Positions 16,167-62,300 of a stretch of DNA of 64,000 bases are shown piece by piece. Origin of the DNA: Porphyra umbilicalis (Eukaryota > Rhodophyta > Bangiophyceae > Bangiales > Bangiaceae); NCBI GenBank assembly GCA_002049455.2, contig KV918802.1, positions 275,057 through 339,056 on the forward strand, given 5' to 3'. Both the position numbers and the translations under genes were made by a program. The notes beneath the pieces are model-generated. The model ran no database searches, had not been told where the DNA came from, and saw nothing but the letters and a program-made list of their open reading frames with translations. Numbering within the stretch: the first letter of the stretch is position 1; the number at the start of each line of letters is the position of its first letter.

Positions 16167-18696
16167 GTGGTCCGGTGCGAGTGGGACTCAAGCCACGGAT
16201 GCGCTGCGGTGTTCCCGGCTCGTAGTGCAGCCGCTCGCGGCTCCATACCGTGCTGCTGGAGCTCGCCGCGAAGAAGCGTCGGTGAGCAACGGCTCGTGGT
16301 CGTAGCCGCCTGCCGCAGCGTGACCGCGAGCTCATCAGAGAGTGCGCGCCGTCCATCCCTCTTTACGTCGCCCGCGATGCGGGGAGCACACCGCTTTGCG
16401 CTGACGGCGGGAGGGTGCGGTCTGACGCAGCGTGACCACGTCGCCTACGCTCAAACGCTGTGTGCGGTGGAGCGCGAGACCGCGCAGGGTGGCACCGGCG
16501 TGGGCCGCATCACGGCGGCATTCCCGTCAGCGCACGGGTTTCTTACTGCCGAGCGCCACGAGCAGAACCGCGTCTTGGCCACGCGCCTGTGGATGCACGT
16601 GCCTGTGAAGATTTCCGGGAGAACATTCTCGTACTACTATCGCGACGTGATGCAGGTGGTGTTGGGCTCTCTGGCCGGCGCGGACACTGTGTCGTTGGGC
16701 GTGGTGCCCTCGGCGGCAGCCGACGCCGCAGCCGCTCATCCAGACGGGTACGAAACTCGCGCGGACCACGTTCGCCGCGGGACGCTTGACGCAGACCTGT
16801 ACGTCGACGAGAGACGCGCTGTACGCCGAATCCACGGTCGGGAGGCGCGGGTGGCGGGGGTGCAACTGCACGCCGATGAGGCGTTGGTGTCGTGTAGTGG
16901 GGCCCATAAAATGTTCCCCCTGCGCGTCAACGTCGTCAATGTACTCGACAATGGCGGACAGTGGTAGACGGTCGGCTACTTGGAGCACATCTCGAAGTCC
17001 GCGTCGCGGACCGCCGCTGCCAAGCTCGCCGTCAGCGACATGCGCAACGACCTGCTGCAGAGGTGCCTCGCTGTTTCTTTGCGCGCTCTGACGCTGGCCA
17101 GCGAGGAGGGCGTGACGGCACCCGTAGCCGGTCACGGCACCGTCTTGTTGGTGCCGAGGGTTCTCGGCCTTGTTGTGGACCAAGTGGAGGAGCGCAGCAT
17201 GTTGGCCCTGATGGGCAACAGACGCCGGTTCTTTTGCTCGCCGTAAATGGAGGATAAGAACGTGAGCGGCGGCTTACTCGGCGTGCGAGCGGTGGATCGC
17301 GACGTGACGACCACCTTCGACGCGCAGCTGGAGGCTGCGTCTGTGCGGGAGGTCGACCCGCGCCCGAGCCGTCGCCGCCAACTCGCGCAGAAGCACAGCG
17401 CGCTCGCGTTTGTTCCCGCGCAAGAGGCTGTACACCTCCTCGGTACGGGCGCGCACAACCTCTACCGATTCGTTTCGTTCGACCTGATGCATGTTTAGAA
17501 GCTCGGTATCCTTCGTCTGCTCGCTCAGAGGCTGCCATCCGTTCTGTCAGCGCTGTGTCGGGACGGCGGCCGTGCTCGACTTGGCACCGTGCAGGACACT
17601 TTGGACGCGCTCAACTTCCGGGGCTTTGAGCTCGGTCGAAACTACAAGGTCACGCCGTCGCCGCCAGAGTAGGTGCTGCTGCTACTGCAGCGTGAAGCGG
17701 GTGGCCTGATGCGCAACGAGCGGGTGGAGCCTAAGGGAATCTCGTGAGCTCTGGTACGGTGCCTAAGAGGCTCGTGAACTGACCGATGCATTGGTCGCTT
17801 GACGCTTTGCTGCCCTCTTTTACTTTTGCGCTCTTTGGAATCGTAGCTGCTTTGTGCGCACGTCGGAGGCGCAAGCTACCATTACGGGGCGCAGTTGGCG
17901 CCTTTTCAGCGTTTTCTGGCCTTTTATGGTCGCCGGCCTGAACGCCCGCGCTCACGTGGCTGAGCCGATTCCTGCAACGGTGGACGGCAGCCCCATCGCC
18001 CCAACTGGAGGCCTGCCCCACGTCGCGGCGGCGATGGGGAGCAGCGGTAGTGGCACATCCAGCGACGACGAAAGCGATGCGGTCTGTGGCTCTTCGTGTG
18101 CCTCGGGAGGGGACGCGCGCGGCTGGGGGCCTGTGCAGGACGACAACCTCGCCGCGGCCGACGTCGGCGGGGACTCCCTGCCTGACGAGCATCTTCATCG
18201 CTCCAGTGATTTCATCTCGTTCTTCCCCGAGACGTCTGTGCAAGACGCTTACCTCGAGTTGTTCTGCCAGGCGGCGCGCCTTGGCGGGATGCTCTTCGGC
18301 GACAACGTGGCTGACGCGACGACGCTCACCGACGGGGTAATTGACGACATGGAAGAGGTCGCTGAGGGGCTCGGCGTCGACTCGCTACAGACACTGTACG
18401 GGCATGTGAACACGACGAAACTGCACCGTCTCGTGGCCCATCTCGGCGACGAGCTGCGCTCGCGTGGCAACCTCTGGGAGGGCGACACGTTGGTCAACGA
18501 AAAGCTCCACGGCAGCTGCAAGCGGATGTACAACAGAAGCAACAAGCGCGGTCCTGGGGTCGCCCTTCAGATGATGCGGTGCGAGGAGACTCAGTCGGCC
18601 GTCCTACGGGAGCTGTGCGATGCCTATGTGGACGACGACGCGTCGGCCGGCCGCAGCCAGTCGACTACGAGTGGCAGCGGCAGCGACGGGAGCGAC
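16167..18696 (+). pseudogene. Decayed CMC/KDZ-type DNA transposase, 5' part
   Basis: A plus-strand frame continues through stops at 16965 (TAG), 17244 (TAA), 17496 (TAG) and 17670 (TAG), then needs a frameshift near 17.7 kb. Further stops follow near 17764 and 17794 before a long clean stretch to 18696. The ordered motifs resemble transposases of the CACTA/Plavaka/KDZ assemblage. There is a strand-like segment ADEALVSCSGAHKMFPLRV, then VVDQVEERSMLALMG followed by a Cys-containing FFCSP knuckle. A D-x2-H motif (FDLMH, 17481-17492) is followed by stop and KLGILRLL, where relatives usually have a Trp. The C-terminal part has a helix-rich block ending NEKLHGSCKRMYNRSNKRG. These enzymes cut and paste DNA in the nucleus. 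The Ser/Asp-rich tail is cut at 18696 by the gypsy element and resumes in frame at 34252. I am confident it is a transposase relic, less so of the superfamily. Confidence 0.65.
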
Positions 18697-19089
18697 TGTG
18701 GTATTAATAACGGTAGTTTAATTACCAGTGTACTGAGACCGACCGTAGCCAAGCAATAAAGCGAGTTCTATCGCCGTCGCGGCGAGGAAGAAGACCTTTT
18801 GTTGAAGGGCATCCGATGGGGAGCCGGGTGGTGCCCACGACGGCGACCCCGGACCCACGGTGATTTAATACAACAACGGCACTGGTCGATCGACCATCCG
18901 ATCAAGCGATCGTAATGAGTGCCGGCAGACAGATAAGACAGGCAAGCAAACAAGCAATAAAAAAATTAACAATGCGGAAGTAACCCCCCGAAGGGCGTGC
19001 CACAAGCCGAGTCACACACATCCGTGGATTCGGCCAGTCAAGAAGGCTACTCGTGGCTAATTGCCAATTGGTAGCAGAGATATGCTACA
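18697..19089 (-). repeat. 3' LTR of the gypsy element
   Basis: 393 bp, reading TGTGGTATTA...TATGCTACA on the plus strand, with short inverted ends. It is nearly identical to 33859-34251 and close to 61906-62300. The purine-rich GTTGGAGG, read on the minus strand, abuts its inner edge (plus 19091-19100) and fits a polypurine tract for second-strand priming. Confidence 0.9.
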
Positions 19090-20198
19090 TACCTCCAACG
19101 CGAGATTCGAACCGTCCCGGTGAGATCCGAGGATGGTGAAACCCGATTGGGCGATCGCGGCCTCTTACGGGCCCGCGCGGGCGCAGCCGCCCAGGCGGCG
19201 GGAGCCGGGGGGGGGGGGGCGCGTCGCCCAGTCCCGATTGGGGGGAGGTGTCGGTTCGCCGTCGTCGGTCGCGACCGTCCTGCCACACACGCGTGGGCGT
19301 GAATGGTGGGCAGCTGACGCTGCGGGTTCGACCGGCGCTTGCGCGTACGCGCGCCCTCGCAGGCAAGTCGGCGTCGGCGTCGGCGTGGTGGCCAGACGGC
19401 CGGTTGACAGGCGACGAGCGTCGGGGTTAAGACCCGTTGGTGCGTGGGTGCGTCGTGCAACACGCGTTGGGGCAACCGTCGTCGGCGCCGAGTGGCGCCT
19501 CCTTCGTCGGGGGTTTGACTACCCCGACGACACGGCGAAAGCCAGGACGCGGGTCCGTGATGGTGCCGAGCGTGGGGGTGGGGTTCACACCTCAAGGCAG
19601 GTTAGCACCGAGGCGTGCGCGCGGGGCAGCACCAGCTGGGTGGTGGTCGTCGTGACGGCATGCGCCGCCCTCGTCGGGGTGTTCACTCCCCCGACGACAC
19701 GGCTGAAGCCGGGGTGCGGGTCCGCGTTGTGTCGGCACGGGGCCATCCCGTGTCTTCGTGCTCGCGCACAGGTCGCTGCCTAACGGCAAGGTTGAGTAGC
19801 GGTGCGCCGCCGCAAGGTGGCACACCGCGAGGTGGGGGGCCCGGTGAGTGTGGGTTTGCGCGGGGTGGGGGGGGGCGGCGAGCACGGCGGCAAGGGCGGC
19901 AAGCCCGGCGGCGACGGCGGCAAGGGCGGCAAGGGCGGCAAGCCCGGCGGCGACGGCGGCAAGGGCGGCAAGCGCTGCGGCAAGGGCGGCAAGCGCGGCC
20001 AGCCCGGCGGCGACGGCGGCAAGGGCAGCAAGCGCTGCGGCAAGGGCGGCAAGCGCGGCCAGCCCGGCGGGGGCGGCGGCAAGGGCGGCAAGCGCTGCGG
20101 CAAGGGCGGCAAGCGCGGCAAGCCCGGCGGCGACGGCGGCAAGGGCGGCAAGCCCGGCGGCGACAGCCAGGGTAAACACCCCCCGGACGGCCAACGCG
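19090..20198 (+). repeat. Leader of the antisense gene: stem-loops and Gly/Lys-coding repeats
   Basis: Between the 3' LTR and the antisense ORF lie two copies (near 19494-19565 and 19670-19730) of a unit with an inverted repeat around TCGTCGGGG...CCCCGACGA, followed by ACGGCGAAAGCC-like sequence. The same pair exists in the second gypsy copy at about 62705-62770 and 62870-62935. From about 19870 to 20165 there is a dense tandem array of GGCAAGGGCGGCAAGCCCGG-type units, which on the plus strand encodes Lys-Gly-Gly-Lys-Pro-Gly-Gly-Asp repeats. In the copy at 63.0 kb this array is in frame with the ORF start. Here a 1-bp difference just before the ATG puts it out of frame. Confidence 0.7.
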
Positions 20199-22157
20199 AT
20201 GGCGGATTCCGCCGCGATGGCGGTGGACGTCGGCGTTTCCGGTGGCGGTGAGGCCATCGACGGGGCGCATGCCGCCGCGGGTGGCCATCCGGAAGTGGAT
20301 TGCTCCGCGGACCCAGAGGTCTTGCGCCAGTTTCGGCCTCGCGGCTCGTACTACGTGCACGCCAACCCTGTGGAGGTGGTCGATGGGGTGCCGCGAGTCA
20401 CCGACAACCGTCTGTACGAGATGTGCGTACGCAACCGCGCTCGTGCGCACACGCGCCGTGTTTACGCGCACTACGAGGCGTTGCCCGACTTCATCGACGT
20501 GATGGCGCATGCCGGGTTGCCGGACCACGCGGGCGACCGCGTGGCCGAGGTCCATGGGGACCCGTACTTTGGAAACCAGGGACCTCAGCGTCGTGTATAC
20601 CAGGTGATGTCGTTTTGCAACGAGGTCGTGCGGTACCAACTGCCGTTGCACCCGTTCCACCGTTTGGTGTACGTCAATGCGCTTATGTTCCCTGTGAAGG
20701 GTACAGAGTCGATCGAGGCGGCGGCCAACTCGTTTTGCCGCTTGCTGCGCAATTGGCCAAAGGCCGTCTTCCTCAAGCGGGCTCTCGCCGAGGACCTGTC
20801 GGTCCCGTTCGGGCACGACTCCGGTCTGGAGCCGTACCTCGAGCAGCTCGCGCTAGTAAAGCACGAGGAGAACGACAACGTCGAGGATGACCGCAGTCCG
20901 CAGGTCACCGGGTTGCCGAACCCCTTTCGGCTGCCGATGTTCCCATCCGACCACCGTCGGGCCGCTGACACGCGCTTCTTTCGCGGTCGCGAGTTGATGC
21001 CTACCGCGTGGGCGGCTGGATTTCTCCGTGCACCACGGGCGTTCGACTTGTACCGTTGGCTTCCGCCTATCCCGGACTGGGAGCCCCACACGGGGTTGTG
21101 GGTGGCGACCCCCGTGGTGGTGTCGTACATGGCGGATGCGTTGCGCAACGCCTACAGCTCCGTCTGGCAGGAGGTGTACTCCGAGTACTGCTGCAACTTA
21201 GTTGCTGCGTGGGTTCACACCCTGCAGGAGGACAAGCTCTTTGTCCACTTGGACACGAAGACGCTTCGTCATTTCGACGCGTTGGATACGTCCAAGTTGA
21301 AGGACGCGCCCGACGGCGAGGCCAAGTACGTCTTGTACGGCAAGATGCGTCAAGCCGTGACGGCGTTTTCCTGGCAAGAGGTCCTCAAGGACGTCGTCTG
21401 GCGCGACCGCGACTCCGGGGAAGCCCGTCAGGTGCGGGTCACGGTCGACCCGACCAAGGAGTACGGCTTTTGCCTTCGCCACCCTTGTGTCGATTTCGAC
21501 TGGGCGTTGGTCCCGAACGCGCCACTCCCGATGGCTCGAATTACTTCGAACCATCCCAGGGTGTGACGTCGTGGTCGTCGGACCTGGGCTCACGCCGTTG
21601 GCGACGCCCGCGAGGGCCGCTACCGCCCGCGTTCACCGCGGCGCGATCGCTCGCCATCTCCGCCCCGGTCAGTGGATGCCACTTGGCCGACCCGCGCGTC
21701 GTCCACAGCGGCAGTTGCCTTGTTTGGGTCGGCGCGCGCGCGCGATGTACGCGTTCGCGCGCCCCGCGGGGCAGCCTTGTCGGCGGTGGCTAGCGCCTGG
21801 GTCGAGCAGATCGCAGGCTTACGTACCGCTGTTGAGCGCGCGGACGGACGGGGTGTGGAGTCGGCTTTGTCCATTATTGGACAGGCCGTGGCTCGCGCCG
21901 TTGACGGCGAGGCCAACTACGGGCGCATCGCCCAGCACCTCGAGGCTATCCAGCCAGAGGAGGAGGCCGCGCCGGCGCGCTTCAACGCGCAGAGCATCCT
22001 TGGTCGTCGAACCCACGAGGGCAGTGGCCCGTCGACGGGGGTTCCGCACTCGGCGCGCAACACGCGTGCGCGTAGTGTCTCGCAGGAGTCGGCGGCCAGT
22101 GTTGTCGCGAGCCGCGATTCCCGCCGGGACTCGCGTTGTCGTGACGACGAGGAGTAG
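20199..22157 (+). pseudogene. Antisense ORF of the gypsy element, unknown about 650-aa protein
   Basis: A 653-codon frame runs opposite to gag-pol, broken only by TGA at 21564-21566 (residues around it read HPRV-stop-RRGRR, consistent with CGA to TGA). The ATG at 20199 matches the start in the second copy (63308). The first 455 residues look like one folded domain with balanced composition (for example RPRGSYYVHANPVEVVDG, LPLHPFHRLVYVNAL, FCRLLRNWPKAVFLKRAL, DLYRWLPPIPDWEPHTGLW, EYGFCLRHPCVDFDWALV). Next comes an RS-rich linker (RYRPRSPRRDRSPSPPRS), then a helical segment (WVEQIAGLRTAVERADG...) and a Ser/Arg tail ending DDEE. I recognise no catalytic motif and no family. Conservation of the protein between two insertions and mainly silent or conservative differences suggest it was selected. 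It could be a silencing suppressor, a Gag-like or an RNA-binding accessory protein; these are guesses. Confidence 0.7.
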
Positions 22158-22299
22158 CGAGGTTCACTGTTCAGTGACTTGCTCGGTTGACCCCGGTGGG
22201 GGGGTGGGGTTGACGATGTCGGGGTCTTACGCCTTTTTAGGGTGTCGATGTTTCTTCGTCTTGTTATTGTTTGTCGTTTGACATGTTTGTATCCACTTC

Positions 22300-22639
22300 T
22301 CAGTTTTTCTGTTTATCGTCATAGCGATGAAGGAAGTGGCAGGCCATCATGGCCCATGTTGTGGGATTTGTATCCTTTGAGTCTGCTGATAAAAGCACTT
22401 CGTACTCGAAACATGCACGTATGGCAGAAGCGTACCAACTGGTGTTGGTCCATTGTGGTATTACCACGGTTGCTTCTTCTGTGGTCGTTACCAAGCGTCG
22501 CAGGACGGAGTCCAAGTGTTGCACTGGAGGTACCATAAACCCGTCGGGGAGCACTGGTACACGGGGATCGCTCCCGATCAGTGTCGCTTGTGCGGATTTC
22601 GGCCACACATATGTGTACGGGCCGTAAACACGGTTCAGC
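22300..22639 (-). pseudogene. C-terminal extension of gypsy Pol (severed by copia)
   Basis: After removing the copia element and one copy of its CAGC duplication, the pol frame continues without a break from 27849 to 22639 and ends at the stop 22300-22302. The module contains a YGPYTYVWP segment, an FMVPPVQHLDSVLRRL segment, and ATVVIPQWTNTSWY. The same order appears in the DIRS element of this window (YGPHSVDLF, WANPPF, ATVTLVAPVW, near 54.9-55.3 kb). In DIRS-like elements this region follows RNase H and has been compared with methyltransferase-like folds. Here an NPPF-type motif is reduced to VPP, so activity is doubtful. Confidence 0.75.
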
Positions 22640-23057
22640 TGTTGGACTGTGATGCTCGTCGCCGACTCCACTGGCGGTTCGCGGATGGATGATGGTCGGT
22701 GACCCTTATGGTACCCCACATGGTACATTTGCAAGACGTGGTCAAGTTGCACACATTTGTGTTGGGTCATCTTGGGGCGTTACTTTTGGCATGTTTTGGA
22801 TTTGATCTTCGCTTTGCTCTAGTGGCTTTTGATTTGGTGAGTGATTCGATTTGGTGCGAGGGCGTGGGCGTCGGTGTGGGCGCGAGAGGGGGGAGCACTT
22901 GGGCCGGTGGGGACTATTTGAGAGGTGCTCTCGGTTGGGAGAGGCGGGCGAACCTGAGGACAACCAACAAAGCACGATCGCACACACACACACAAGCTCA
23001 AGCCACTCAACCACTTCACCGTGGTCCCCCAACACCTATCCCCACTGCGATTCAACA
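22640..23057 (+). repeat. Copia 5' LTR
   Basis: 418 bp from TGTTGGACTG to GATTCAACA with TGTTGGA/TTCAACA short inverted ends. It is essentially identical to the 3' LTR. A related but diverged LTR piece occurs at 1130-1424. Confidence 0.95.
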
Positions 23058-23071
23058 GGTTATGGGCCCAG
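23058..23071 (+). promoter_or_regulatory. Copia primer-binding site (initiator tRNA-Met, internal)
   Basis: Directly after the 5' LTR the sequence GGTTATGGGCCCAG is complementary to the anticodon loop and flanking stem of eukaryotic initiator tRNA-Met, not to a tRNA 3' end. Drosophila copia and some algal copia elements prime from a half-tRNA cut at this place. The tRNA match is from known tRNA sequence features. Confidence 0.75.
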
Positions 23072-23218
23072 AGCCGGGGCTGTGACAAGAGCAAGGTGTG
23101 CCAGCTGGTGTCGCGGCGGTCGCGGCAAGTGCGAAGAAGACGAGGTCAAGGTGGTTCAAGGACGTGACGGTCAAGGCGCACGGCTCGGCAAGGTCGGGCG
23201 CTACGACAAGAAGACATC

Positions 23219-26200
23219 ATGGACGGAGGCGCTGCCGGCATGGGCGGCATCAAGATCGACAAGTTGACGGAGACGAACTTCCACGAGTGGCGTCAGCGCA
23301 TTAAGATGGTCCTCGCGCTGCGCGACCTGGACGATATGCTTGACGAAGACGGCAAGCCGACGGACGCGGATGCCCGCGAGTTGGCGGTGTGGAAGAGTCG
23401 AGACACGAAGGCGAGCGCCATCATCGGGCTCACCCTTGGATCTGAGCAGCTCGAGCACGTGGCGGGCTGCAAGACGACGGCGGAAATGTGGTCGACGCTG
23501 CAAGGTGTCTTCCAGCGCAAGAGTTTGATGAACAAGATGAAGGCGCGACGCGAGTTCTACACCGTCGAAATGACCGTCGGCGAGGGCATGCTGGGCTACA
23601 TCAACCGCGTGCGCAACCTCGGCGAGAACCTTAAGGCCATGGGCGGCGAGGTGACGGAGATGGACGTTGCGATGAGCGTCCTGAACGGGCTGACGTCCAA
23701 GTACGAGAACCTGCTGGTGGCTCTCGACGCCAAGGGCAAGGACGAGCTCAGCCTCGACTTTGTCAAGAGCCGCTTGCTTCAGGAGGAGCGGCGGCAGGCG
23801 GACAAGTCACCGGCGACGAAGCGCATTGGCGACATGGCACTCGTCGGCGCCAACTATCGAGGTCAAGGCCGCCGTGGTGACCTCTCCAGGATCGAGTGCT
23901 ACTACTGCCATACGTTTGGGCACATCTCTCGCGATTGCCCAGAGCTCAAGGCCAAGAAGCAGAGGCAGGACAAGGTGGCCGCGATTGCGGCTGACGATGG
24001 TAGCGACAGCGACGACGCCATCTGTCTGGTGGGCAATGCGGCTGACACCGATGACATCTCCAAGTCGTGGCTTGTCGATACTGCGGCGTCTGCACACATG
24101 TGCTGGATGCGCGGGTGCTTCGACGACTACCAGACGACCACGGGACGCAGCGTCACCATGGGTGACAAGGGGTCCGTAGCCACGGCGGGCGTCGGAACCG
24201 TCGTGCTCAATTTCATCGTTCACGGCAGGACGCGCAAGATCAAGTTGGAGAAGGTACTCCATGTTCCTACCATGGGCTTCAACCTCATGTCGGTCGGCAT
24301 GATGGAGGAACGTGGTGCGGAAGTGTCATTCAAGGGCGGTAAGACGATCATCAAGATTAGCGACAAGGTCGCTGCGTGCGGCACGCGGAAGAGTGGGCTC
24401 TACCACCTGGACATGGCCCCACTGTTGGATATTGCTGCGGTGGCCTCCCTTCAGCTTTGGCATGAGCGCCTTGGGCACGTCAACGTGGCTGGCGTTAAGC
24501 GGATGATCCAGAACAAGGACATCAATGGACTCAAGTGCTCTTCCATGGCGGTCAAGGACGTCCGCGAGCCGTGCGTGTATGGGAAGGCAGCTATGACGCC
24601 TATGCCTAGTGCAGGAGGAGGTCGAGTCAGCAAGCGCCTGCAGCTCGTGCACTCGGACCTGGGCGGGCCAATGTCGGAGCCGTCGCGTGGCGGTGCGCTC
24701 TACTTTGGCACCTTCACTGACGACTTCTCCCGCTGGACAGACGTGGTATTCCTGCAGAAGAAGAGCGATCTGCTCTCGGAGCACAAGAAGTGGCTGTCGA
24801 AGGCCCAGCTGCATACGGGAACCAAGATCAAGATCCTACGTTCCGATAATGGCGGCGAGTATGTGTCGAATGCATTCAAGGCTCTTCACGATGAGAACGG
24901 CACGACGCACCAAACCACGGTGCCCGACACGCCACAGCAGAATGGGGTTGCTGAGCGGCTCAACCGAGTTCTCGTGGAGATGGCTCGCACCATGATGCGA
25001 CACAAGGACGTCGATCAAGACCTTTGGGCGGATGCCATCAAGACGGCGGTCTACATCAAGAGCCGCGTCACCAGCCGGGCGCTTCCCGTCGGCAAGACGC
25101 CTTTTGAGCTGTGGACCGGAAATAAGCCCGACGTAAGCCACATGCGGGTTTTTGGGTCGACATGCTGGGTGGTGCTGCACAAGAGTCACATCGACGGCAA
25201 GTTTGGCGACAAGGCAGCGAAGGGCGTCTTCTTAGGCTATCCAGACGGTAGCAAGGCGTACAAGGTCATCCTCGACGACGGCAAGGTCGTCAAGGCACGA
25301 AGCGTCGTGTTCGCCGAGACGAACGTGAGCGAGGTTGCAGAAGTTGCAGAGGAGCTTCCCGCAGACGAAAACGTCGGAGTCGAGACGGGTTTGCGCTCTG
25401 AAAGCGACGGCGGAGACGTGGATGCTGACAATGACGACAAGGATGACAAGCAAGACGATGGATCTGACAAGTCCGCGGACGACAATCAAGGTTGTGGCGG
25501 CTCTCAAGACACGCTGCGTCGGAGCGGCAGAGCGCGGCGACCCCCTGTCGAGTACTGGCGCCCGGTGAGCCTGGTTGCTCACGAGGCGCCCACGACGTAC
25601 GTGCAAGCCGTTCAAGGGCAGGAAGCTGCTAAGTGGCAGATTGCCATGGACGAGGAGATGGAGGCCATCCGCAAGAACAAGACTTGGCGCTTGACGGATC
25701 GCCCGGCCAGTCGACGCGTGCTGAAGGGCAAGTGGGTTTACAAGGTCAAGAACGAGGTTGACAAGAACGGGAACAACACGACGCGTCACAAGGCGCGCCT
25801 GTGCTTCATGGGGAACCGGCAGATCAAGGGGCTCGACTTCAACGAGACGTTCGCGCCGGTGGCCAAGTTCACCACCATTCGATGCATCCTGGCAATGACG
25901 GCGGCGAACGGGTGGGAGCTACATCAGATGGACGTCAAGACGGCATTCCTCAACGGCGACCTTGACGAGGAGGTCTACATGGAGCAGCCAGACGGCTATG
26001 TCGATCCGACGTATCCTGACAAAGTGTGTCGTCTCCTCCAAGCGCTGTATGGGCTGAAGCAAGCTCCCAAGATGTGGTACGCCAAGCTCGACGACTTCCT
26101 CAAGTCGCAGGGGTTTGACAACATTGACCCGGATGCATGCCTCTACCTCCTCATGGATGACGGCGAAATCATCATCGTCCTGGTGTACGTCGACGATCTC

Positions 26201-27395
26201 CTGTTGGTGGCATCATGCCTGGCGGCAATCTACAAGATTAAGGACGCTCTGCACAAGCGTTTTGAGATGAAGGACCTGGGCGAGGCGAAGGTCATCCTCG
26301 GGCTAGAGATTAGGCGTGACAAGGCGTTGGGCACCCTGAAGCTGTTGCAGGGCAAGTACGCGGCGCAAGTGCTGGAGAAGTTCGGGATGGCGGAGTGCAA
26401 CCCGATCGGAACGCCGCTGGAGGTGGGCCTGCAGCTGGTCAAGGCCGACGAGAGCGACGACGCGCTGCCCTACCGCGAAGCCGTCGGCAGTCTGATGTAC
26501 CTGATGGTCGGGACACGTCCTGACCTCGCCTTCGCTATCGGGAAGCTGAGTCGGTTTGTTTCGTGCTACGGCAAGGAGCATTGGGCGGCGATCAAGCGCG
26601 TTCTACGGTACGTCAAGGGTTCGATGGACAAGGGGCTGGTCTTCGACAAGAACTCTTCCTGTGTTCTACAAGGCTTTAGTGATGCCGACTGGGCGGGTGA
26701 CCACGAGACGCGACGTTCTACGACGGGCTTCACCTTCATCTTTGGCGGAGCAGCCGTCAGCTGGGGTTCTAAGTTGCAGAAGACGGTGGCGCTGTCGACG
26801 ATGGAAGCCGAGTACATGGCTCTATGTGAGGCCAGCAAGGAAGCTGTTTGGCTCAACAAGCTCGTGCAAAGCGTGGCAACTCAAGGGCTGCGGACAGCGA
26901 TCTGGGGCGGGCCGATCAACATCAAGGTCGACAACAGCGGGTGCATTGACTTCTCCGAGAACCCCGTCGAGCACAAGCGCACTAAGCACCAGGGGTTGTC
27001 AGAATATGGTTTTTTGGCCGTATCCGGGCCAGAATACGGATATTATCCAGAATATGTCGCAGAATATTCGTCCATGATTGTCCATTGAAAAATAAAAGAC
27101 CACCTACGGAATGCTCTGGACGTCACTATGTCAATATCCCGAGCTGCTCGGGCAAAATGACGTCGAATATAGTCGTTTTGTTTGCAATTACAGTAGCCCA
27201 GGATATCAGATATATATCCTGACAACCCCTGCTAAGCACATCGACATTCGCTACCACTTTGTGCGCGAGGCCATCACGACGGACAAGGTGACACTGGAGC
27301 ATTGTGCAACGGACGACATGGTGGCGGACCCGATGACGAAGGAGCTCGGCAAGACCAAGCACGACAAGCATGTCGAGGCCATGGGGCTTTGCTGA
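23219..27395 (+). pseudogene. Copia Gag-Pol polyprotein, disrupted only by a MITE
   Basis: One frame from ATG 23219 runs to 26989 and resumes after the MITE at 27240, ending at the stop 27393-27395. About 1,310 residues result if the MITE and one 8-bp repeat are ignored. Order: Gag capsid-like block with WRQRIKMVLALRDL; CCHC knuckle CYYCHTFGHISRDC (near residue 227); protease VDTAASAHM (near 286; DTAA in place of DTGA); GAG-pre-integrase zinc region LWHERLGHVN...PCVYGK, where the first Cys of the expected CxxC appears to be Arg; integrase DDE in HSDLGGP, SDNGGEY and NGVAER; RT with YVDD (near 989); RNase H with SDADWAGD and TMEAEYMAL. The MITE separates the last about 50 residues (HIDIRYHFVREAI...). 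There are no internal nonsense changes before the MITE, which agrees with very recent insertion. Confidence 0.9.
26990..27231. mobile_element. 242-bp hAT-type MITE
   Basis: Ends are CAGGGGTTGTCAG on the left and CTGACAACCCCTG on the right, perfect inverted repeats of 13 bp. The flanks are an exact 8-bp duplication CTAAGCAC (26982-26989, 27232-27239), the hallmark of hAT transposition. The inside is AT-rich compared with the host element, with repeated CAGAATAT-like motifs near both ends, and has no coding capacity. It interrupts the copia RNase H, and precise removal would restore that frame. Confidence 0.92.
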
Positions 27396-27430
27396 ATACA
27401 AGAACCGCCGCGGGAACAAGCAAGGAGGAG

Positions 27431-27848
27431 TGTTGGACTGTGATGCTCGTCGCCGACTCCACTGGCGGTTCGCGGATGGATGATGGTCGGTGACCCTTAT
27501 GGTACCCCACATGGTACATTTGCAAGACGTGGTCAAGTTGCACACATTTGTGTTGGGTCATCTTGGGGCGTTACTTTTGGCATGTTTTGGATTTGATCTT
27601 CGCTTTGCTCTAGTGGCTTTTGATTTGGTGAGTGATTCGATTTGGTGCGAGGGCGTGGGCGTCGGTGTGGGCGCGAGAGGGGGGAGCACTTGGGCCGGTG
27701 GGGACTATTTGAGAGGTGCTCTCGGTTGGGAGAGGCGGGCGAACCTGAGGACAACCAACAAAGCACGATCGCACACACACACACAAGCTCAAGCCACTCA
27801 ACCACTTCACCGTGGTCCCCCAACCCCTATCCCCACTGCGATTCAACA
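27431..27848 (+). repeat. Copia 3' LTR
   Basis: 418 bp, same as 22640-23057 apart from one base near its end. It follows the polypurine run CAAGGAGGAG and is followed by the CAGC target duplication. Confidence 0.95.
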
Positions 27849-30800
27849 CAGCCGAGAGAAATGCCGCAAGGCAAGTTGGGGATCATACGCAAAGTTGCGC
27901 GTCATGGACGGCAGAGTGGACTTGAGCCACGCCACAGGAATTACTTCCTTGATTGCAACGTCGGTACTTGACTCTGTCCAAGAGACATTGGCATGGATAA
28001 CTCCGTCACCGGTAACATGGACATGTTGGATAGTGGGTATCCACGTGGAGTCCGTGACGATGTTGGCCACGGTTGTGAGCCCGGCCTGTCGGCGACTTCG
28101 TCGCGTTGGCGTTTGCCACTCGTACCCCGGTACATGCTTCTTCTTCAGTCGAAGGAAACGCACCACCAGGTTGCAGGGGAGGTTCTCCAGGGGTTCCCAG
28201 GTGTCGTCTTTCGACCCGTAGTCGAACCAGCGCACCTTAGCGCTATAGCTGTCACCTGTCTGGCGTAAGCCTAGGAGTTCGTCGATCACATACTCATCGG
28301 CAGTTGCCGGGGTTGACATGCGTTGGTCTAGACCATCTAGCAAGGGGTGTGGAACCTTGTCCGTCGTCGTTGGACGAGGAGCTGGGGTGACATGGTCACT
28401 GCTGACGCGTTTCTCCTCGCCGTCCATGTCAATGACAAACGTGGAGGCGTCCGCGTCCGCGTCGACGACCACGAAGGGGCCAATGGCTTTGCTTTGCAGC
28501 TTGTTTTGCCGATCGTGGTTGGTCGTGTATACGTAGTCGCCGATCTTGACGTCCGCATTGCGGGATGCGACCCGATGGTCGAAGTTACGTTTGTAACGTT
28601 GTTGCGTCTTACGTAAGGCCTCGACCACGATGGGGATCTGCTTGCGCAGGCGGGCCATGAACTCGCGCTTGCGAGCTAGGGGTGACCCATCCTTGAGCGT
28701 TCCCTTATTGGTAAGCGGAGTGCCCGGGGGCAAGTTGCGAACCGTGAGGTTGGGGATCCGCCTTGGGATAACGAGCTCAAATGGGGCGATGCCCGTCGAC
28801 CGATGTGGTTGGCTATTATACGCCATGGTGATTACCGGGAGTAGCGCATCCCATCGTGATGGGTCGTCGGCGACGTAGTGTCACAGCTGCGTAGCCATGG
28901 TACGGTTGTACCGTTCAACTTGCCCATTGGTTTGGGGATGATAAGCCGTGGTGCGAACCGTTTCAATGCCAAGCATTTTCATCACAGCGATGAAGAAGTT
29001 CGACATGAACTGGGGCCCTTGGTCCGATAGGATACGGTCCGGTGGCCCGTAGGCTGACACCCACGCGTCGATGATGGCTGACGCCACTGACATAGCCGTG
29101 ATTCGCCGCAAGGCGACGCACTTGGTGAGCTTGGCGAAGCGGTCGGTGATAACCAAGATGAAGCGGTTGCCCTTCTTGGAGACCGGGATGGGCCCAAAGA
29201 TGTCAACGGATAGCTCCGTGAGAGGCTCGGTAGCCTGGAACAGGGTCAAGGGTGTGGTGTGTCGCCGCAAGGCGAGGCGGTTTTGCGCACACGTTGTGCA
29301 TTTGGTGATGGTCGAATGAATATCCGTCACCATTGAAGGCCAGTAGTATGCCTTACGCATTGTGTAGTACATCCGGTCCATACCAGGATGGGCGGCCACG
29401 GTTGCGTGGTGCTCGAGGGTCAACACGCGTTCGCGTAGCGACTTTGGAATAACCAGTTGATTGCCGTAAGGCGCACGGCGGTACAGAGCGTGGTGCTTAT
29501 CGCGGAAGAAGGCCTTGGCCGTTCCGCGCTCCACGCGAGTGGACATCTCGACGCAAAAGTCGTCTGTTTGTTGTGCTTCGACAACATCGTCGAACTCCAC
29601 CGGTTCCGGTGTGTCGGTACCCGTGTACCTCCCCGTTCTTAAGCCGTTGGCCGTCTCGGCCAACGCCAGACAAGGTCTATCATCGTGGATATCTTCTGGC
29701 GGCGCCACCGTAGAGGCGCGCGACAGGAAGTCGGGCAAGTGGTGCGATGCACCTGGTTTATAAACCATATCGAATGTGTATTCGGAGAGGCGAAGTCGCC
29801 ATCGCATCAAGCGTCCGCTTGAGTCGGTCGTGCTGTAGATCCAGCTAAGTGCTTGGTGATCCGTTCGGATGAGGAACCGTTGTCCGTCGAGGAGGTGCCT
29901 CAACTTGAGGACAGCCTACACAACGCCGAGGCATTCTCGCTCCGTGGTGGAGTAGTTTTGCTCTGCAGCAGTGAGTCCTCGGCTCCAATGCCCGACAGGG
30001 TGAAGCAGTTCGCCCGGCTCCTCTTGGAGGAGGGTACAACCAACTTGGTCGGCGCATGCGTCCACGTCAACGACGAGCTTCCGATTGGCCTTCGGCAAGG
30101 CAAGTACCGGTGGGCACAACAGTGCGTTGCGCAGGTCCTCGAAGGCGGCGATAGCCACGTCCGTCGGTGGTGGTAAATCCGGTGGGATCTCGGCCCTAGT
30201 CAGGGCGTTCAGGGGCTTTGCTCGTTTGGCAAAGTCTTTGACAAACCGTCGATAGACGTTGCACATTCCCAAGAAGCTTTTCAGCTGGGTCTTTGTGGTT
30301 GGGAACTTGGCATGCTTCAGAGCATCCACGTTCTTGTTGTGCACGTGCAGTTGCCCGGGGCGGACAATGTGTCCTAGGTACTCGACCTCATCGGAGAACC
30401 ACGTACACTTTTCCTAGTTGAGGGTGACCCCGGCTTCACGGAGACGGTGAAGAACCGTGTCAACGTCTTTGACGTGTTGTTCCGCGTTGGCGGAGAAGAT
30501 GATGACATCGTCTAAGTAGACGAGGCATATCTGCCACTTCAAACCCGAGAGGATAATATCCAACGCGCGCTGAAAGGTAGCGGGCGCGTTCGTCAAGCCG
30601 AAAGGCATGGATAACCAGTGGTATATACCACAATGCGTTGTGAACGCTGTCTTCTCTTGGTCTTCCTTGCGTAAGGGTACTTGCCAGTACCCCGCGGTGC
30701 AGTCGAGAGACGTGAACACCTGGGCATCTCCCAAGGAGTCGAGGCAGTCCTCCATCCGAGGCAAGGGATAAGCATCCTTCTTGGTGATGTTGTTTAACCG

Positions 30801-31862
30801 CCGATAGTCGATACAGAATCGGGCCTTGCCGTTCTTCTTTGGTACAATTACCACGGGGCTTGCCAAAGCACTATGGCTACGGGCAATGACGTTGAGCTTC
30901 AACATCTTGTTGATCTGATCAGCGATGATCTGCTGTTTGAACGGCCCGGTTCGGTAGGGTTGGGCCCGTATGGGCAGAGCGTCGGGAGGAGTGACGATGG
31001 CGTGCTCCGTAGCATGGATGACGCCCAGGGTTCCATCCCACATAGACGAATGCGTCTTCAGCATGTCTCGAATCTGCTTGTGCAGGTACTCGGGTGCCTC
31101 ACTGAGGTCGAGGTCGTCTAGTGGGTCACGACTCGCGTCGTCCGATGAGTTATCGGTTCCACCCTTTGGGGTGTTGTCATCCAAGACGGCGGAAAGCATC
31201 GGCCCTTGGTAGGGTTCCGCAAACCCCAAGGTAGAGTTCTTGCGAACAATGACTTGGTCCTTGCCGAAGTTGCATAACTTGACCAGGAATGGTTCGTCCG
31301 GTTTGACGATGGCGATGCCGCGGGCGACTGCCATGGACTTGTGTCGGCACAACCGAATGTTCGGTGTGATCGTCACCATGCCCGAGGTGTCGCACGTGGC
31401 CATGATCCACTCCTCCTTGTGTCCGTTGACACGCACCTGTTTGCAGGCTCGAACCCGAGCGGGTTTATCTTGCCAGTGGCGGTCCCACGCGCTGTCGTTA
31501 AGACAAGCTAAGATCGGCGTTGGCCGAGGTTGCTCTTTCGTGCATCGCACGTGCTCTTGCCAGACGATCTTGCGCAAGCGCGGCAGAATGCCCTCGATGT
31601 TTTGTTCAATGAACTCGGTGCCAAGAATGCACGGGACTGACAAGTTGTCGGCAACGAGGAATCGGTCAAATAGACGCACACCTCCGGTGTCTACATACAG
31701 ATGTATGGCATACTTCGTCACAAGACGATTGTTGTTTGCATCTCGGATGCGCGGAAGCGTAGTCAACTCTTCGGCGTAAGCCATCCAGTTCGAAGGGAGA
31801 ACACTATTTCGCACTATGTTCACCCCGGCGCCCGTGTCTAAGACAGGGCGGCAACTTCGCAT
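27849..31862 (-). pseudogene. Gypsy Pol: protease, RT, RNase H, integrase, chromodomain
   Basis: A single minus-strand frame from 31862 runs to the copia insertion at 27849 with only three stops: TAG 30414, TAG 29916 and TGA 28881. None involves a frameshift. Order: aspartic protease LDTGAG at the very start; RT with the YLDD catalytic site (LVYLDDVIIF, near 30500); RNase H (VVDVDACADQVGC, then TTEREC); integrase with an H-H-C-C zinc motif (HHATVAAHPG...CTTCAQ), DDE residues in VDIFGP, SDQGPQF and NGQVERYNR; and a chromodomain-like segment (YVIDELLGLR...WEPLENL) typical of chromoviruses that target chromatin. After the chromodomain the frame continues about 100 codons and resumes beyond the copia element at 22639. 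The stops fit CAG to TAG, TGG to TAG and CGA to TGA. Confidence 0.9.
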
Positions 31863-31981: not shown

Positions 31982-33628
31982 CTAGACGTTTTTCGAGTCG
32001 TCCACGGCGTCGGCCGGATGCTCGACCTCGTCTTCCTCGACGTTACCGTCGGCAAGGGCATGAACGCCGATAGGCGGTTGCCGACGCTCGCGAGGGCGAT
32101 AAGGCTCGGCACACTGTGCGGCGAAGTGCCCCGGCTTGTTACAGTTGTAACAGATGTCAGCCCGATTGGCTTGAGGGACGGCGGCCCGAGGGGGCGGCGG
32201 GGTGCGAACCGGTGTGAACGGTCGTTCCGTCGTCGTCCGCTGGTCTTGTGTCGCGTAAGCGACTTTGATCGCCGTTGGGCGGGTCGTCTTGAGTTGCAAA
32301 CGCAACTTGTTCGTACCGTCCCAATACATCTGGGCGGTGGCGACTGTCTCAGACAGGGTTCGGTCTGGGAACTGGTCGTTCAGTACCCGTACGTGCGCTT
32401 GCACAAGGTCCGAAAGACCAGTGATGAAGACGTCCTTAACGTCTTGGATGTCGAACAAACCGTTCAGGAGGTCGCATTGCGTTCCCACGCGATTACCAAA
32501 GGCCGTGGGCGCCTCGTTGTCTTGTTGCTTCATCGTAATGATGTCTTGATAGGCGTTAGCCATAGTTGCGTGTGTCGCATACTTCGAAAGAAGCCAGTTG
32601 ACGGCATCTCCGTAGGTACGGATGGCGTAACGCTTACGTCCGAGGGTGCTGTTAAGCGCGCCGGAGAAGGCCATCTTGGCGTTGCCGGCTTGTCGAAAGA
32701 CCATAAGCGGAAGGGCTTGACCGTGCGTCAGCCCATCCACGTCGCATGCGCGGCGAAAGGTCGTCAGGAACGTGAAGATGCCCAAGGGCAGGGCTCCCGT
32801 GAATGGCTGTTGCCGATGGAACGCTCCGTCTAAACGTTTGCTAAGACGATGCGACCGTTGTGCCTCCTTAGGCGTATACGTCAGTTGACGGCGGATCAGG
32901 AAGTACGTCCTGTAGTCCAGGAGTGTCTTGAAGCGGCTATTAGCCGGGCGGATCACCTTGATCCTATCGGCTTTTTCAAGTCGCTCCTTCCGTTTGGTGG
33001 GGGGCGCGGGGCGCTTGCGCGCGGCCGCGTCCGACTCGCTCGAGCTTTCGCTCGGCGAGGACCCACTTGGGGGCGACGGCGGGTGTGGGGGCCCGTGGCC
33101 ATCGTCCGAAGAGGACGTGTCCGTCGCGTTGGGGTTGTCGTCGTCTGACGACGTCGGGCTTGACCCAGAAGCGGAATCGTCCGAAGATGAGGAAAGCGCG
33201 GCGTTAGCCGGAGCGTCCTTGCGGACGGACTTGTCCTTAATCACCTTGCTCGTCTTCTTGACATCCTTGGTCTTGTCGCCCGACCGGCGGCGAGACTTAG
33301 CCACACGGCGTTCCTCCTCATGGGAGTCAACCTTGCGCAGGGCCTCGACGTCGTCGACCAACTTGTCATTGGCTCGCGCCAGAGACTCGTTAGTCTGTTC
33401 TTGGGCCGTTTGGCGTCGCTGAAGTGCTTCAACGGCCGCCTTCAGGCTCTCCACCACCTGCATCTGCCCAGAGGCGGCTTGATCCGCAGGGATAGGAGGA
33501 GTTGGAGCACCGTCCGTTGGGGCGTCGGAGGCGGCAGGAGTGCCTTGTCCCCCGCCCGGCGGCCGGTAGCCAGATGGCAATTTGCCGTCTCTGGCTCGCC
33601 GAGTGCCGCCGGTACCACCAGTAGACAT
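31982..33628 (-). CDS. Gypsy Gag with CCHC zinc knuckle
   Basis: An intact 548-codon frame. The N-terminus is Gly/Pro-rich. Residues about 60-110 form a coiled coil (VVESLKAAVEALQRRQTAQE). A long Ser/Asp-rich linker follows. A retrotransposon capsid-like helical block starts near residue 230, and a CCHC knuckle CYNCNKPGHFAAQC (near residue 495) binds element RNA. It packages the transcript into cytoplasmic particles. The frame differs from that of pol, which opens about 80 bp after the gag stop, so pol expression needs a frameshift, bypass or re-initiation. Confidence 0.85.
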   Translation of the reverse strand: MSTGGTGGTRRARDGKLPSGYRPPGGGQGTPAASDAPTDGAPTPPIPADQAASGQMQVVESLKAAVEALQRRQTAQEQTNESLARANDKLVDDVEALRKVDSHEEERRVAKSRRRSGDKTKDVKKTSKVIKDKSVRKDAPANAALSSSSDDSASGSSPTSSDDDNPNATDTSSSDDGHGPPHPPSPPSGSSPSESSSESDAAARKRPAPPTKRKERLEKADRIKVIRPANSRFKTLLDYRTYFLIRRQLTYTPKEAQRSHRLSKRLDGAFHRQQPFTGALPLGIFTFLTTFRRACDVDGLTHGQALPLMVFRQAGNAKMAFSGALNSTLGRKRYAIRTYGDAVNWLLSKYATHATMANAYQDIITMKQQDNEAPTAFGNRVGTQCDLLNGLFDIQDVKDVFITGLSDLVQAHVRVLNDQFPDRTLSETVATAQMYWDGTNKLRLQLKTTRPTAIKVAYATQDQRTTTERPFTPVRTPPPPRAAVPQANRADICYNCNKPGHFAAQCAEPYRPRERRQPPIGVHALADGNVEEDEVEHPADAVDDSKNV

Positions 33629-33839
33629 ACTGCGACCTGAACAAAGTGTTCCGACTTGGCTTACGCCCTGCGCGCCAACGTCGGAGATCTCAACCGTGAT
33701 GCCCCCGGCACGACGCCCACAAGTCGATGGCTTACGCCCCGCGCGCCAAGCGACCGTATCGACACCGTCACAATGCCACGAGGCAGCGAGAAAGTTCTCG
33801 GGGACACCGTGCCGCGAGGCACGATGAAGGCGAGGGTAT

Positions 33840-33856
33840 CCCCTGCTGCTCCACCA
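33840..33856 (-). promoter_or_regulatory. Gypsy primer-binding site
   Basis: Two bases inside the 5' LTR the minus strand reads TGGTGGAGCAGCAGGGG. It starts with the TGG expected to pair with a tRNA 3' CCA end. The exact tRNA is not identified. Position and the leading TGG are the evidence. Confidence 0.65.
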
Positions 33857-33858
33857 AA

Positions 33859-34251
33859 TGTGGTATTAATAACGTTAGTTCAATTACCAGTGTACTGAGA
33901 CCGACCGTAGCCAAGCAATAAAGCGAGTTCTATCGCCGTCGCGGCGAGGAAGAAGACCTTTTGTTGAAGGGCATCCGATGGGGAGCCGGGTGGTGCCCAC
34001 GACGGCGACCCCGGACCCACGGTGATTTAATACAACAACGGCACTGGTCGATCGACCATCCGATCAAGCGATCGTAATGAGTGCCGGCAGACAGATAAGA
34101 CAGGCAAGCAAACAAGCAATAAAAATTTAAACAATGCGGAAGTAACTCCCCAAAGGGCGTGCCACAAGCCGAGTCACACACATCCGTGGATTCGGCCAGT
34201 CAAGGGGGCTACTCGTGGCTAATTGCCAATTGGTAGCAGAGATATGCTACA
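33859..34251 (-). repeat. 5' LTR of the gypsy element
   Basis: 393 bp, the partner of 18697-19089. It has the same TG...CA ends and about nine differences, mostly around an A-rich run and a C-rich run. It should hold the promoter for gag-pol on the minus strand. The target duplication GCGAC follows at 34252. Confidence 0.9.
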
Positions 34252-34991
34252 GCGACGATGGGGCCGCCACCCCCGGTGAGAACGCCAGGATCCACCGTCC
34301 AACGAGCAGCAGCCGTGCCGCTGGCGGCGCTGGCGGGAGCAACACGACGCTGCCGCCGCCTCTTCATACAACGCGTCTCTCGTTCAGCGGGCGCGGGCAG
34401 CGCGTTGCCATCGGCGACCTGCGCCGTGTGCCGGCCCTGGCCAGAGTCGGTGCTGTGCTCGGCATGGGGGACGCGGATTGGGTGACGCAGCACAGCACGA
34501 TGCGGATTGTCGCGCGCTTTGAGTGGGGCGCGCCATCGGCCTTGCAGCATCTGCGAGCAACCGACAGCTTCTTCGGGAAGGCTTGGTACTCCTTCGTGCG
34601 CTACAATGACGTCGCGGGTGGCGTGTGCTGGGGGCGCACGCGAATCGTGCTGCGCTCGCTCGGCGACGACCGGCGCAGTTGCGTAGTCGTCCAGCGCATG
34701 CGTCGGGCGACGCCGCGGCCAGGTTGCGTTCTCACGCGGTACGGATGCGTACGACTCGCGTGGCACTTTGAGGACGAGCACGCTTCCCACCCCGCCTTGG
34801 AGTTGGTGGATGCGACCCGCATCCTGCGGGCAAAGGACGTGCAGGCCGACTGGCGCGACCTCGGGGACCGCCTCGGCCTCCGCGCGACGCCGCGAAACAA
34901 GCACAACTCGGTGTCCGAACGCCGGGCGGCGCGTTACTTCACGAACGTGTTCTACCCATGGACGAGCCGCGAGCAGCAGCCGGGTTTCTAG
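34252..34991 (+). pseudogene. Decayed CMC/KDZ-type DNA transposase, 3' part
   Basis: This is the continuation of the frame broken at 18696. The 5-bp duplication GCGAC lies at the end of the left piece and the start of the right piece, and the codon phase is identical on both sides (Ser-Asp in each). The first 40 residues complete the disordered acidic tail. The remaining about 200 form a folded-looking domain with WVTQHSTMRIVARFEWG, SFFGKAWYSFVRYND, a beta-rich VCWGRTRIVLRSL segment and CVRLAWHFEDEHASHPALELV. The stop is at 34989-34991. The function of this C-terminal domain is not known to me. Confidence 0.6.
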
Positions 34992-61905: not shown

Positions 61906-62300
61906 TGTGGTATTAATAACGTTAGTTCAATTACCAGTGTACTGAGACCGACCGTAGCCAAGCAATAAAGCGAGTTCTATCGCCGTCGCGGCGAGGAAGA
62001 AAGACCTTTTGTTGAAGGGCATCCGATGGGGAGCCGGGTGGCGCCCACGACGGCGACCCCGGACCCACGGTGATTTAATACAAACGAGGGCACCGGTCGA
62101 TCGACCGTCCGATCACAAGCGATCGTAATGAGTGCCGGCAGACAGATAAGACAGGCAAGCAAACAAACAATAAAAATGAACAATGCGGAGGTAACCCCCC
62201 AAAGGGCGTGCCACAGGCCAATTCCCACAATACATGGGCTTTGGTCAGTCAAGGGGGCCACTTGTGGCCAATTGCCAATTGGGAGCAGAGTTATGCTACA
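61906..62300 (-). repeat. 3' LTR of the second gypsy copy
   Basis: 395 bp with the same ends (TGTGGTATTA...TATGCTACA) as the first copy's LTRs. It differs from both of them by clearly more than they differ from each other (for example in the stretch after AATAAAAATG and in the CAATACATGGGC region). Confidence 0.9.

What the first reader, a model, noticed from the sequence alone, without database searches (positions are those of the whole stretch)
18697..22639. A long antisense gene is a constant part of a Ty3/gypsy element
Seen in sequence: between the end of pol and the 3' LTR, on the opposite strand, lies a 653-codon frame with a single C-to-T-type stop. The second insertion (61906 onward) has the same gene at the same distance from the same LTR, including its leader. 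The element's boundaries are fixed by LTRs and a GCGAC duplication, so the gene is internal. Antisense extra ORFs are known in a few plant LTR elements, but this protein matches nothing I know. It could be an envelope-like, silencing-suppressor or RNA-binding accessory protein.
Basis: partly seen in the sequence, partly recalled or inferred. Interest (0 to 1): 0.9.

Follow-up and report, generated by a model that had tools for sequence, protein, structure and literature searches.

The report
Antisense accessory gene of a retrotransposon
A jumping element of the Ty3/gypsy kind carries, on its opposite strand, an extra protein-coding gene of unknown fold that selection keeps working in many copies, although a large group of closely related copies has lost it, so it may be a shared helper rather than an indispensable part of each copy.

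Summary
On the + strand at 20199-22157, between pol and the 3' LTR of a minus-strand Ty3/gypsy element, lies a 653-codon frame with one internal stop; 20 of 30 fetched copies are open for 652 codons. It is a real gene: in 26 copies dN/dS is 0.16 (codons 1-455) and 0.28 (rest), against 0.37 for gag; between two subfamilies it is 0.21-0.22. No significant Pfam or PDB match.

"Constant part" is wrong. At least 40 places share one deletion junction that leaves a recognisable remnant of about 47 codons. Of the 59 best pol copies 29 have the gene, 22 the junction, 8 are unassigned. Two deleted elements examined are recent (LTRs 393/393 and 392/393, 5-bp duplications), so the gene is not needed in cis. 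Between subfamilies the gene's synonymous divergence is four times (one pair) or twice (another) that of adjacent pol, with a rise in identity at its stop codon: it behaves like an exchangeable cassette.

Best reading: a trans-acting, perhaps nuclear accessory gene, the same descriptive class as the antisense ORFs of plant Grande, RIRE2 and Retand, with no TRP28 match. Transcription, function and host are untested.

The parts
18692..18696 (.). target-site duplication GCGAC, 3' side of the element (other copy 34252-34256)
18697..19089 (-). 3' LTR of the Ty3/gypsy element
   Evidence: 97.7% identical to 33859-34251
19090..19860 (+). leader upstream of the antisense gene; present in gene-bearing, gene-deleted and the two shortened elements seen; splice-donor-like motif at about 19844
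19861..20198 (+). GC-rich short tandem repeats before the ATG (open in frame, no ATG)
20199..22157 (+). antisense accessory gene, 652 codons in intact copies; the window copy has one internal stop
22158..22299 (.). 142 nt between the stop of the antisense gene and the stop of pol (tail to tail)
22300..22639 (-). C-terminal end of pol, cut off from the rest by the nested element
   Evidence: frame 22300-22770 on -; pol residues 649-757 at 22641-22315
22640..27848 (+). nested Ty1/copia element (LTRs 22640-23057 and 27431-27848, 1289-aa ORF 23219-27088)
27849..31862 (-). pol: RT (30414-31862 frame), RNase H and integrase (28881-29903 frame) and the chromodomain region; broken into several frames in this copy
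   Evidence: 96.8% identical to P0136 residues 1-650, chromodomain tested in P0136 only
31982..33628 (-). gag, 548 aa, zinc knuckle
33834..33856 (-). putative tRNA primer-binding site 2 nt after the 5' LTR; fits gag-pol as the sense strand
   Evidence: read by eye; inference
33859..34251 (-). 5' LTR
34252..34256 (.). target-site duplication GCGAC, 5' side
61906..62300 (-). 3' LTR of the second element
   Evidence: 92.2% to 33859-34251
63308..64000 (+). first 231 codons of the antisense gene in the second element, cut by the contig end
   Evidence: 89.6% identity

Best explanation
The frame is a genuine antisense accessory gene of a chromodomain-bearing Ty3/gypsy element. Shown: it lies tail to tail with pol inside the LTRs; it is under purifying selection, most clearly in differences shared between copies; its divergence is out of step with that of its neighbours, as expected of a block exchanged between related elements; and elements with a shared deletion of it have moved recently, so it is not needed in cis. 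Inferred: it is transcribed on the + strand from a promoter in the 1.1-kb leader or the 3' LTR, perhaps with removal of the GC-repeat stretch as an intron. Inferred: its product, with an Arg-rich linker and a tail with some RS/SR pairs, acts in trans, perhaps in the nucleus (helping genomic RNA or integration complexes, or dampening host silencing), so that gene-deleted siblings can use the product of complete ones. A real, selected gene is near certain (0.95); trans action about 0.6; a nuclear regulatory role about 0.4.
For: 30 of 30 fetched gene loci have the LTR within about 1.5 kb upstream. 66 of 93 scored copies show no stop in the 455-codon query part, 27 do (my count; only the best of 447 candidates were scored). 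Open for 652 codons in 20 of 30 fetched loci, 649 in one more. dN/dS 0.163 and 0.280 in 26 of 30 loci; gag 0.365 in 11 of 13 loci. Differences shared by two or more copies, read against copy L011: 58 synonymous, 16 non-synonymous, 0.091 per site. Between subfamilies 0.206 (CI 0.16-0.26) and 0.220 (0.17-0.28); 0.200-0.220 over ten pairs. Other frames closed. Deletion siblings; recent. Cassette: dS of gene v pol end 0.83 v 0.20 (L012/L072) and 0.89 v 0.42 (L012/L071), confidence intervals not overlapping; within the second subfamily the two agree, 0.279 v 0.305. Identity L030/L072 is 0.65-0.83 inside the gene, 0.84-0.89 in windows across its stop, 0.90-0.95 beyond. In copy L011 K+R is 26% in residues 456-520, and 7 RS/SR pairs follow residue 455 against 2 before it.
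Against: No transcript or protein evidence. No homolog of known function. AlphaFold2 models are poor (mean pLDDT 41.7 and 44.5). The junction is found beside 22 of the 59 best pol copies, so the gene may simply be dispensable rather than supplied in trans. The upstream edge of the divergent block is gradual, through the repeats, not sharp. The RS content is modest and nuclear action rests on analogy with Grande.
Confidence: 0.6

Rival explanations
1. The antisense transcript rather than the protein matters: it pairs with the genomic RNA and regulates copy number through small RNAs; the open frame is a by-product.
For: Antisense transcripts and such a role are discussed for LTR elements (PMC7264820, parts 1-2 of 3 read).
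Against: Codon-position pattern, dN/dS 0.09-0.28 and closed alternative frames show that the amino-acid sequence is selected; a role of the RNA alone predicts no such bias.
Confidence: 0.08
2. The gene is dispensable: selected in one lineage for a lineage-specific benefit, with no trans supply to deleted siblings, which are fully independent.
For: Two deleted elements are as recent as two gene-bearing ones (LTRs 393/393 and 392/393 against 393/393 and 390/393); at least 40 places carry the junction. The gag part read is open in both deleted elements checked (L066, L068). 13 of the 22 junction-bearing pol copies have no stop in the 757-aa query part (my count).
Against: The ratio in the gene is lower than in gag (different sets of copies), and it is kept in two subfamilies with dS 0.83-0.89. 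Gene-bearing pol copies are stop-free somewhat more often, 24 of 29 against 13 of 22 (my count).
Confidence: 0.3
3. The gene comes from, or has been taken up as, a host gene: the lone divergent homolog at contig C91 is its cellular counterpart.
For: C91:116769-118115 matches metagenome protein P0137 at 86% over residues 2-450 without a stop; the other 93 rows, many of them gene copies known, are at 33-37% (94 of 280 candidates scored).
Confidence: 0.15
4. A later, unrelated transposon carrying its own gene inserted once into the element and hitch-hikes.
For: The rise of identity at the gene's end.
Against: Two subfamilies carry it at the same place with a shared leader, and no mobile-element domain reached significance in the protein. 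No inverted repeat of 100 nt or more around the gene is listed; shorter ends and an empty site were not searched for.
Confidence: 0.05

Closest known systems
Antisense additional ORFs between pol and 3' LTR (aORF-3R) of plant elements: maize Grande gene23, rice RIRE2, Silene Retand, bean PvRetro13 (PMC7264820, parts 1-2 of 3 read; PMC11963269, abstract and passages)
   Same: Same place, same antisense orientation, present in many copies, conserved like the element's own proteins; tandem repeats in the same region are reported for about half of the Retand elements studied.
   Different: TRP28 (PF04195) is not among the Pfam matches of 65 homologs. Here there is a large natural deletion subfamily and a sign of block exchange. 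This element carries a chromodomain, whereas the Retand lineage is described as non-chromovirus.
brtn of Boty elements in the fungus Botrytis cinerea (PMC7264820 parts 1-2; PMC8365987 passages; the original paper, Zhao et al. 2011, not read)
   Same: Additional antisense gene of a gypsy element outside plants.
   Different: Sequence not compared (no brtn sequence was fetched).
Antisense genes of retroviruses such as HBZ of HTLV-1 (named in PMC11963269, passages)
   Same: Antisense gene with a nuclear product, according to that paper.
   Different: Function here unknown; no sequence relation was tested.

Membership tests
Antisense aORF-3R of LTR retrotransposons (descriptive class) | between pol and 3' LTR, opposite strand | tested here: met
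   window; six second-subfamily loci:
Antisense aORF-3R of LTR retrotransposons (descriptive class) | present in all or most copies of the family | tested here: inconclusive
   29 of 59 best pol copies have it, 22 carry the deletion junction, 8 unassigned; the pol query came from a deleted element, which biases the sample
Antisense aORF-3R of LTR retrotransposons (descriptive class) | sequence conservation like the element's own proteins | tested here: met
   dN/dS 0.16-0.28 against gag 0.365
Antisense aORF-3R of LTR retrotransposons (descriptive class) | antisense transcript from its own promoter; nuclear product (reported for Grande) | not testable with these tools
   no RNA or protein data
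Retand TRP28 proteins (PF04195) | Pfam Transposase_28 domain | tested here: not met
   65 homologs scanned; not among the five families listed at E <= 1, each matched by one member
Envelope-like aORF | sense orientation downstream of pol | tested here: not met
   antisense
Envelope-like aORF | transmembrane segments | not tested
   no predictor was run
Chromodomain-bearing Ty3/gypsy element | chromodomain after the integrase | tested here: met
   in L069 of the same family: PF00385 28.5 bits against cut-off 25.1; chromodomain chains in PDB match within residues 494-555
Chromovirus clade proper | RT phylogeny | not tested
   no RT tree was made; PMC12477816 (passages) notes chromodomain gypsy elements outside the clade

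The most novel reading that the evidence does not exclude
The gene is a shared, trans-acting helper that circulates as an exchangeable cassette among closely related Ty3 elements, and its deletion subfamily is a natural population of cheaters that depends on complete elements; the lone divergent homolog at C91 would be a host-held version.
Probability: 0.25. Interest if true: 0.75.

Novelty: new variant of a known kind. Interest (0 to 1): 0.55.

Why it matters
The function of antisense genes in LTR retrotransposons is open in the papers seen here (PMC7264820, PMC11963269). This family offers a protein under strong constraint without known relatives, together with a natural set of recent siblings that lack it, in one genome. 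Comparing transcripts, small RNAs and insertion ages of the two groups could tell whether the product acts in trans, without any engineering.

Tried and rejected
Led nowhere: Pfam on the gene (best E 0.11), on 65 homologs (five families, one member each, best E 0.11) and on P0137 (none); PDB sequence search with a profile (none at E <= 10); two AlphaFold2 models, both too poor for a fold search, which I therefore did not run; viral-contig scan (32 stretches matched a pattern, none confirmed); Rfam on 18650-20250 (one hit, E 2.2, below its gathering score); tRNA scan of the window (none). A tRNA-like stretch beside the 3' LTR, noticed by eye, was dropped. In-frame repeats upstream of the ATG as a coded N-terminal tail: open for at least 81 codons in the 29 loci read, but without an ATG there, and stops are few in all three frames (0-6 per 450 nt), so not claimed; metagenome protein P0002 does have an upstream ATG. 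A reverse-strand frame with dN/dS 0.30 was rejected: its third positions coincide with those of the forward frame (inference), and it has stops in every copy. Host identity was not established: 83.8 Mb in 665 contigs, window GC 0.64; a bangiophyte red alga is my guess from recall. Rows dropped before counts: L018, L029, L037, L038 of the 30 loci; L041 and L062 (frameshifted) of the 13 gag loci; the earlier gag ratio of 0.668 that still included them is superseded. A first classification counted C10 and C52 as gene-bearing from a motif more than 5 kb away; one search replaces it.

Paper searches for antisense genes in LTR elements of algae or in general; no report of this gene or of one in a red alga was seen in the listings, in a library that lacks most subscription journals.
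Full report
WHAT IS THERE. The window lies at the end of contig C42 of an 83.8-Mb assembly. A Ty3/gypsy element on the minus strand runs from its 5' LTR (33859-34251) through gag (31982-33628; zinc knuckle) and pol to its 3' LTR (18697-19089). The LTRs are 384 of 393 identical and GCGAC flanks both ends. The sense strand follows from gag-pol and fits a tRNA-primer-like site two bases inside the 5' LTR, read by eye. A Ty1/copia element (22640-27848, LTRs 417 of 418 identical) is nested in the last part of pol: pol residues 1-650 map to 29798-27849 and 649-757 to 22641-22315. In a related copy, L069, the pol end carries integrase and a chromodomain (PF00385, 28.5 bits against a cut-off of 25.1) followed by about 200 further residues.

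THE ANTISENSE FRAME. On the plus strand, 20199-22157, tail to tail with pol (pol stop at 22300; 142 nt between the stops), is the 653-codon frame with one internal stop. The 455-aa first part found 93 scored copies in the genome; 66 rows show no stop and 27 do (my count; 93 of 447 candidates scored). All 30 fetched loci have the element's LTR within about 1.5 kb upstream. Of these 30, 20 are open for 652 codons and one for 649; 7 stop early, L018 runs off its contig without a stop, and L037 was not read because my start finder missed its start. The second element in the window has the same arrangement; its 231 codons are 89.6% identical.

IS IT A GENE? Yes. In 26 of the 30 loci, pairwise differences fall at codon positions 1745:1506:5710 in the first part; dN/dS is 0.163 there and 0.280 in the rest. 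By 50-codon windows it is 0.06-0.29 over codons 51-450, 0.35 over 451-500, 0.14-0.20 over 501-600, and high at the two ends (0.69 for 1-50, 0.55 for 601-650). The first 420 codons of gag in 11 of 13 loci give 0.365. Differences from copy L011 that two or more copies share, hence probably present in source elements, count 58 synonymous and 16 non-synonymous, 0.091 per site. The other five frames have 2-17 stops per copy, the forward frame 0-1.

TWO SUBFAMILIES AND A CASSETTE. Metagenome homolog P0006 is 99% identical to a place in the same genome, and places at 79-87% to it form a second subfamily, against 70-71% for the first. Six such loci were fetched: three are open to about their full length (L071, L072, L076) and three stop early. 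All six have antisense pol downstream; five have the LTR in view (86-91%), and L072 does not, its match starting within the leader. Between subfamilies the gene has dS 0.89 (CI 0.76-1.08; L012 v L071) and 0.83 (0.70-1.00; L012 v L072) with dN/dS 0.21-0.22. The pol end of the same loci has dS 0.42 (0.31-0.56) and 0.20 (0.13-0.29). As a control, L071 v L072 within the second subfamily agree: 0.279 for the gene, 0.305 for pol. Identity along L030/L072 is 0.65-0.83 inside the gene, 0.84-0.89 in windows across its stop and 0.90-0.95 beyond; upstream it declines more gradually through the repeats. The simplest reading is exchange of the gene as a block, as by template switching; the mechanism is inferred.

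THE GENE IS NOT CONSTANT. Of 30 LTR loci, 11 have the same LTR (about 97%) and a diverged leader, with no gene match within the 1.5 kb read. Two such elements were read over about 5 kb: leader, GC repeats, a remnant matching residues 46-92 (51% identity), then a jump to just outside the pol stop. In L069 the pol part read is open for 757 codons; in L070 it falls into two frames. The junction was found 14 times at up to 3 mismatches, 11 of them exact, with none for the reversed control; a gene motif was found 90 times, control none. A 331-bp query across the junction matched over its whole length in all 40 rows scored, the cap of that search. By coordinates, of the 59 best pol copies 29 have the gene motif 1.6-1.8 kb beyond pol, 22 have the junction, and 8 could not be assigned; the pol query came from a deleted element. 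Of these, 24 of 29 and 13 of 22 show no stop in the pol query part (my count). LTR pairs of two deleted elements are 393/393 and 392/393, and of two gene-bearing ones 393/393 and 390/393, all four with 5-bp duplications. LTRs of the two groups interleave in a weakly supported tree of 34. So one deletion spread widely, and the gene is not needed in cis.

WHAT STAYS IN SHORT ELEMENTS. C505 (3.6 kb) lacks most of gag-pol and carries the deletion junction; C83 (2.6 kb, LTRs 393/393, four matching bases at its flanks) keeps the 5' region, roughly the first 160 codons of the gene, and the leader. The leader is thus present in every class seen, which suggests a cis role. A splice-donor-like motif about 350 nt before the ATG is exact in 28 of 30 gene-bearing loci and 11 of 11 deleted ones; its core is present in one more of the 30 and in 5 of 6 second-subfamily loci. 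This is a lead for a 5' intron, not evidence of one.

WHAT THE PROTEIN IS. No significant Pfam match in the window protein, in 65 homologs, or in P0137; no PDB sequence match. Database searches returned 90, 187 (120 listed) and 17 proteins, none with a Pfam domain in the rows shown. One distant relative, P0137, is 34% identical over 456 columns. Its nearest place in this genome, C91:116769-118115, is 86% identical without a stop; the other 93 rows scored are at 33-37%. Whether C91 is a host gene or a third element lineage is unknown, because its flanks could not be read. In copy L011 residues 456-520 hold 26% Lys+Arg, and there are 7 RS/SR pairs after residue 455 against 2 before. AlphaFold2 gave mean pLDDT 41.7 and 44.5, so no fold is claimed.

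COMPARISON WITH WHAT IS KNOWN. Antisense ORFs between pol and the 3' LTR are known in Grande, RIRE2, Retand and PvRetro13 and in the fungal Boty element; their functions are undetermined, with a nuclear product for Grande (PMC7264820, parts 1-2 of 3 read). 97% of the Retand clusters studied encode TRP28 antisense proteins, and about half of the elements have tandem repeats in the same region (PMC11963269, abstract and passages). The present gene belongs to that descriptive class by place and orientation, but shows no TRP28 match. I saw no report of it in the paper listings, and the host itself is not established.

VERDICT. A real accessory gene, correctly spotted, but variable rather than constant. 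The best-supported mechanism is a trans-acting accessory protein, perhaps nuclear; the nuclear part rests on analogy and composition. Independence of the deleted siblings is the main rival.

Noticed in passing
window 41826-44690 (-): 955-aa ORF with a Plant_tran/DDE_Tnp_4 transposase domain (residues 187-387) that overlaps a 13-copy tandem array of 99-nt units (33 codons each) at about 41914-43443.
   Followed up: no
window 22640-27848 (+): Very young nested Ty1/copia element: LTRs 417 of 418 identical, single 1289-aa gag-pol ORF, four matching flank bases CAGC; a search with part of its LTR listed 41 matches in the genome.
   Followed up: partly
L069:837-3110: Pol continues about 200 residues past the chromodomain with no Pfam family reaching its cut-off there.
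   Followed up: no
G000:C91:116769-118115: Lone divergent homolog of the antisense gene, 86% to metagenome protein P0137, no stop; flanks unread.
   Followed up: partly
window 52097-52338 and 52797-53038: Inverted repeat of 242 nt, 98% complementary, 458 nt apart: possible DNA transposon ends.
   Followed up: no
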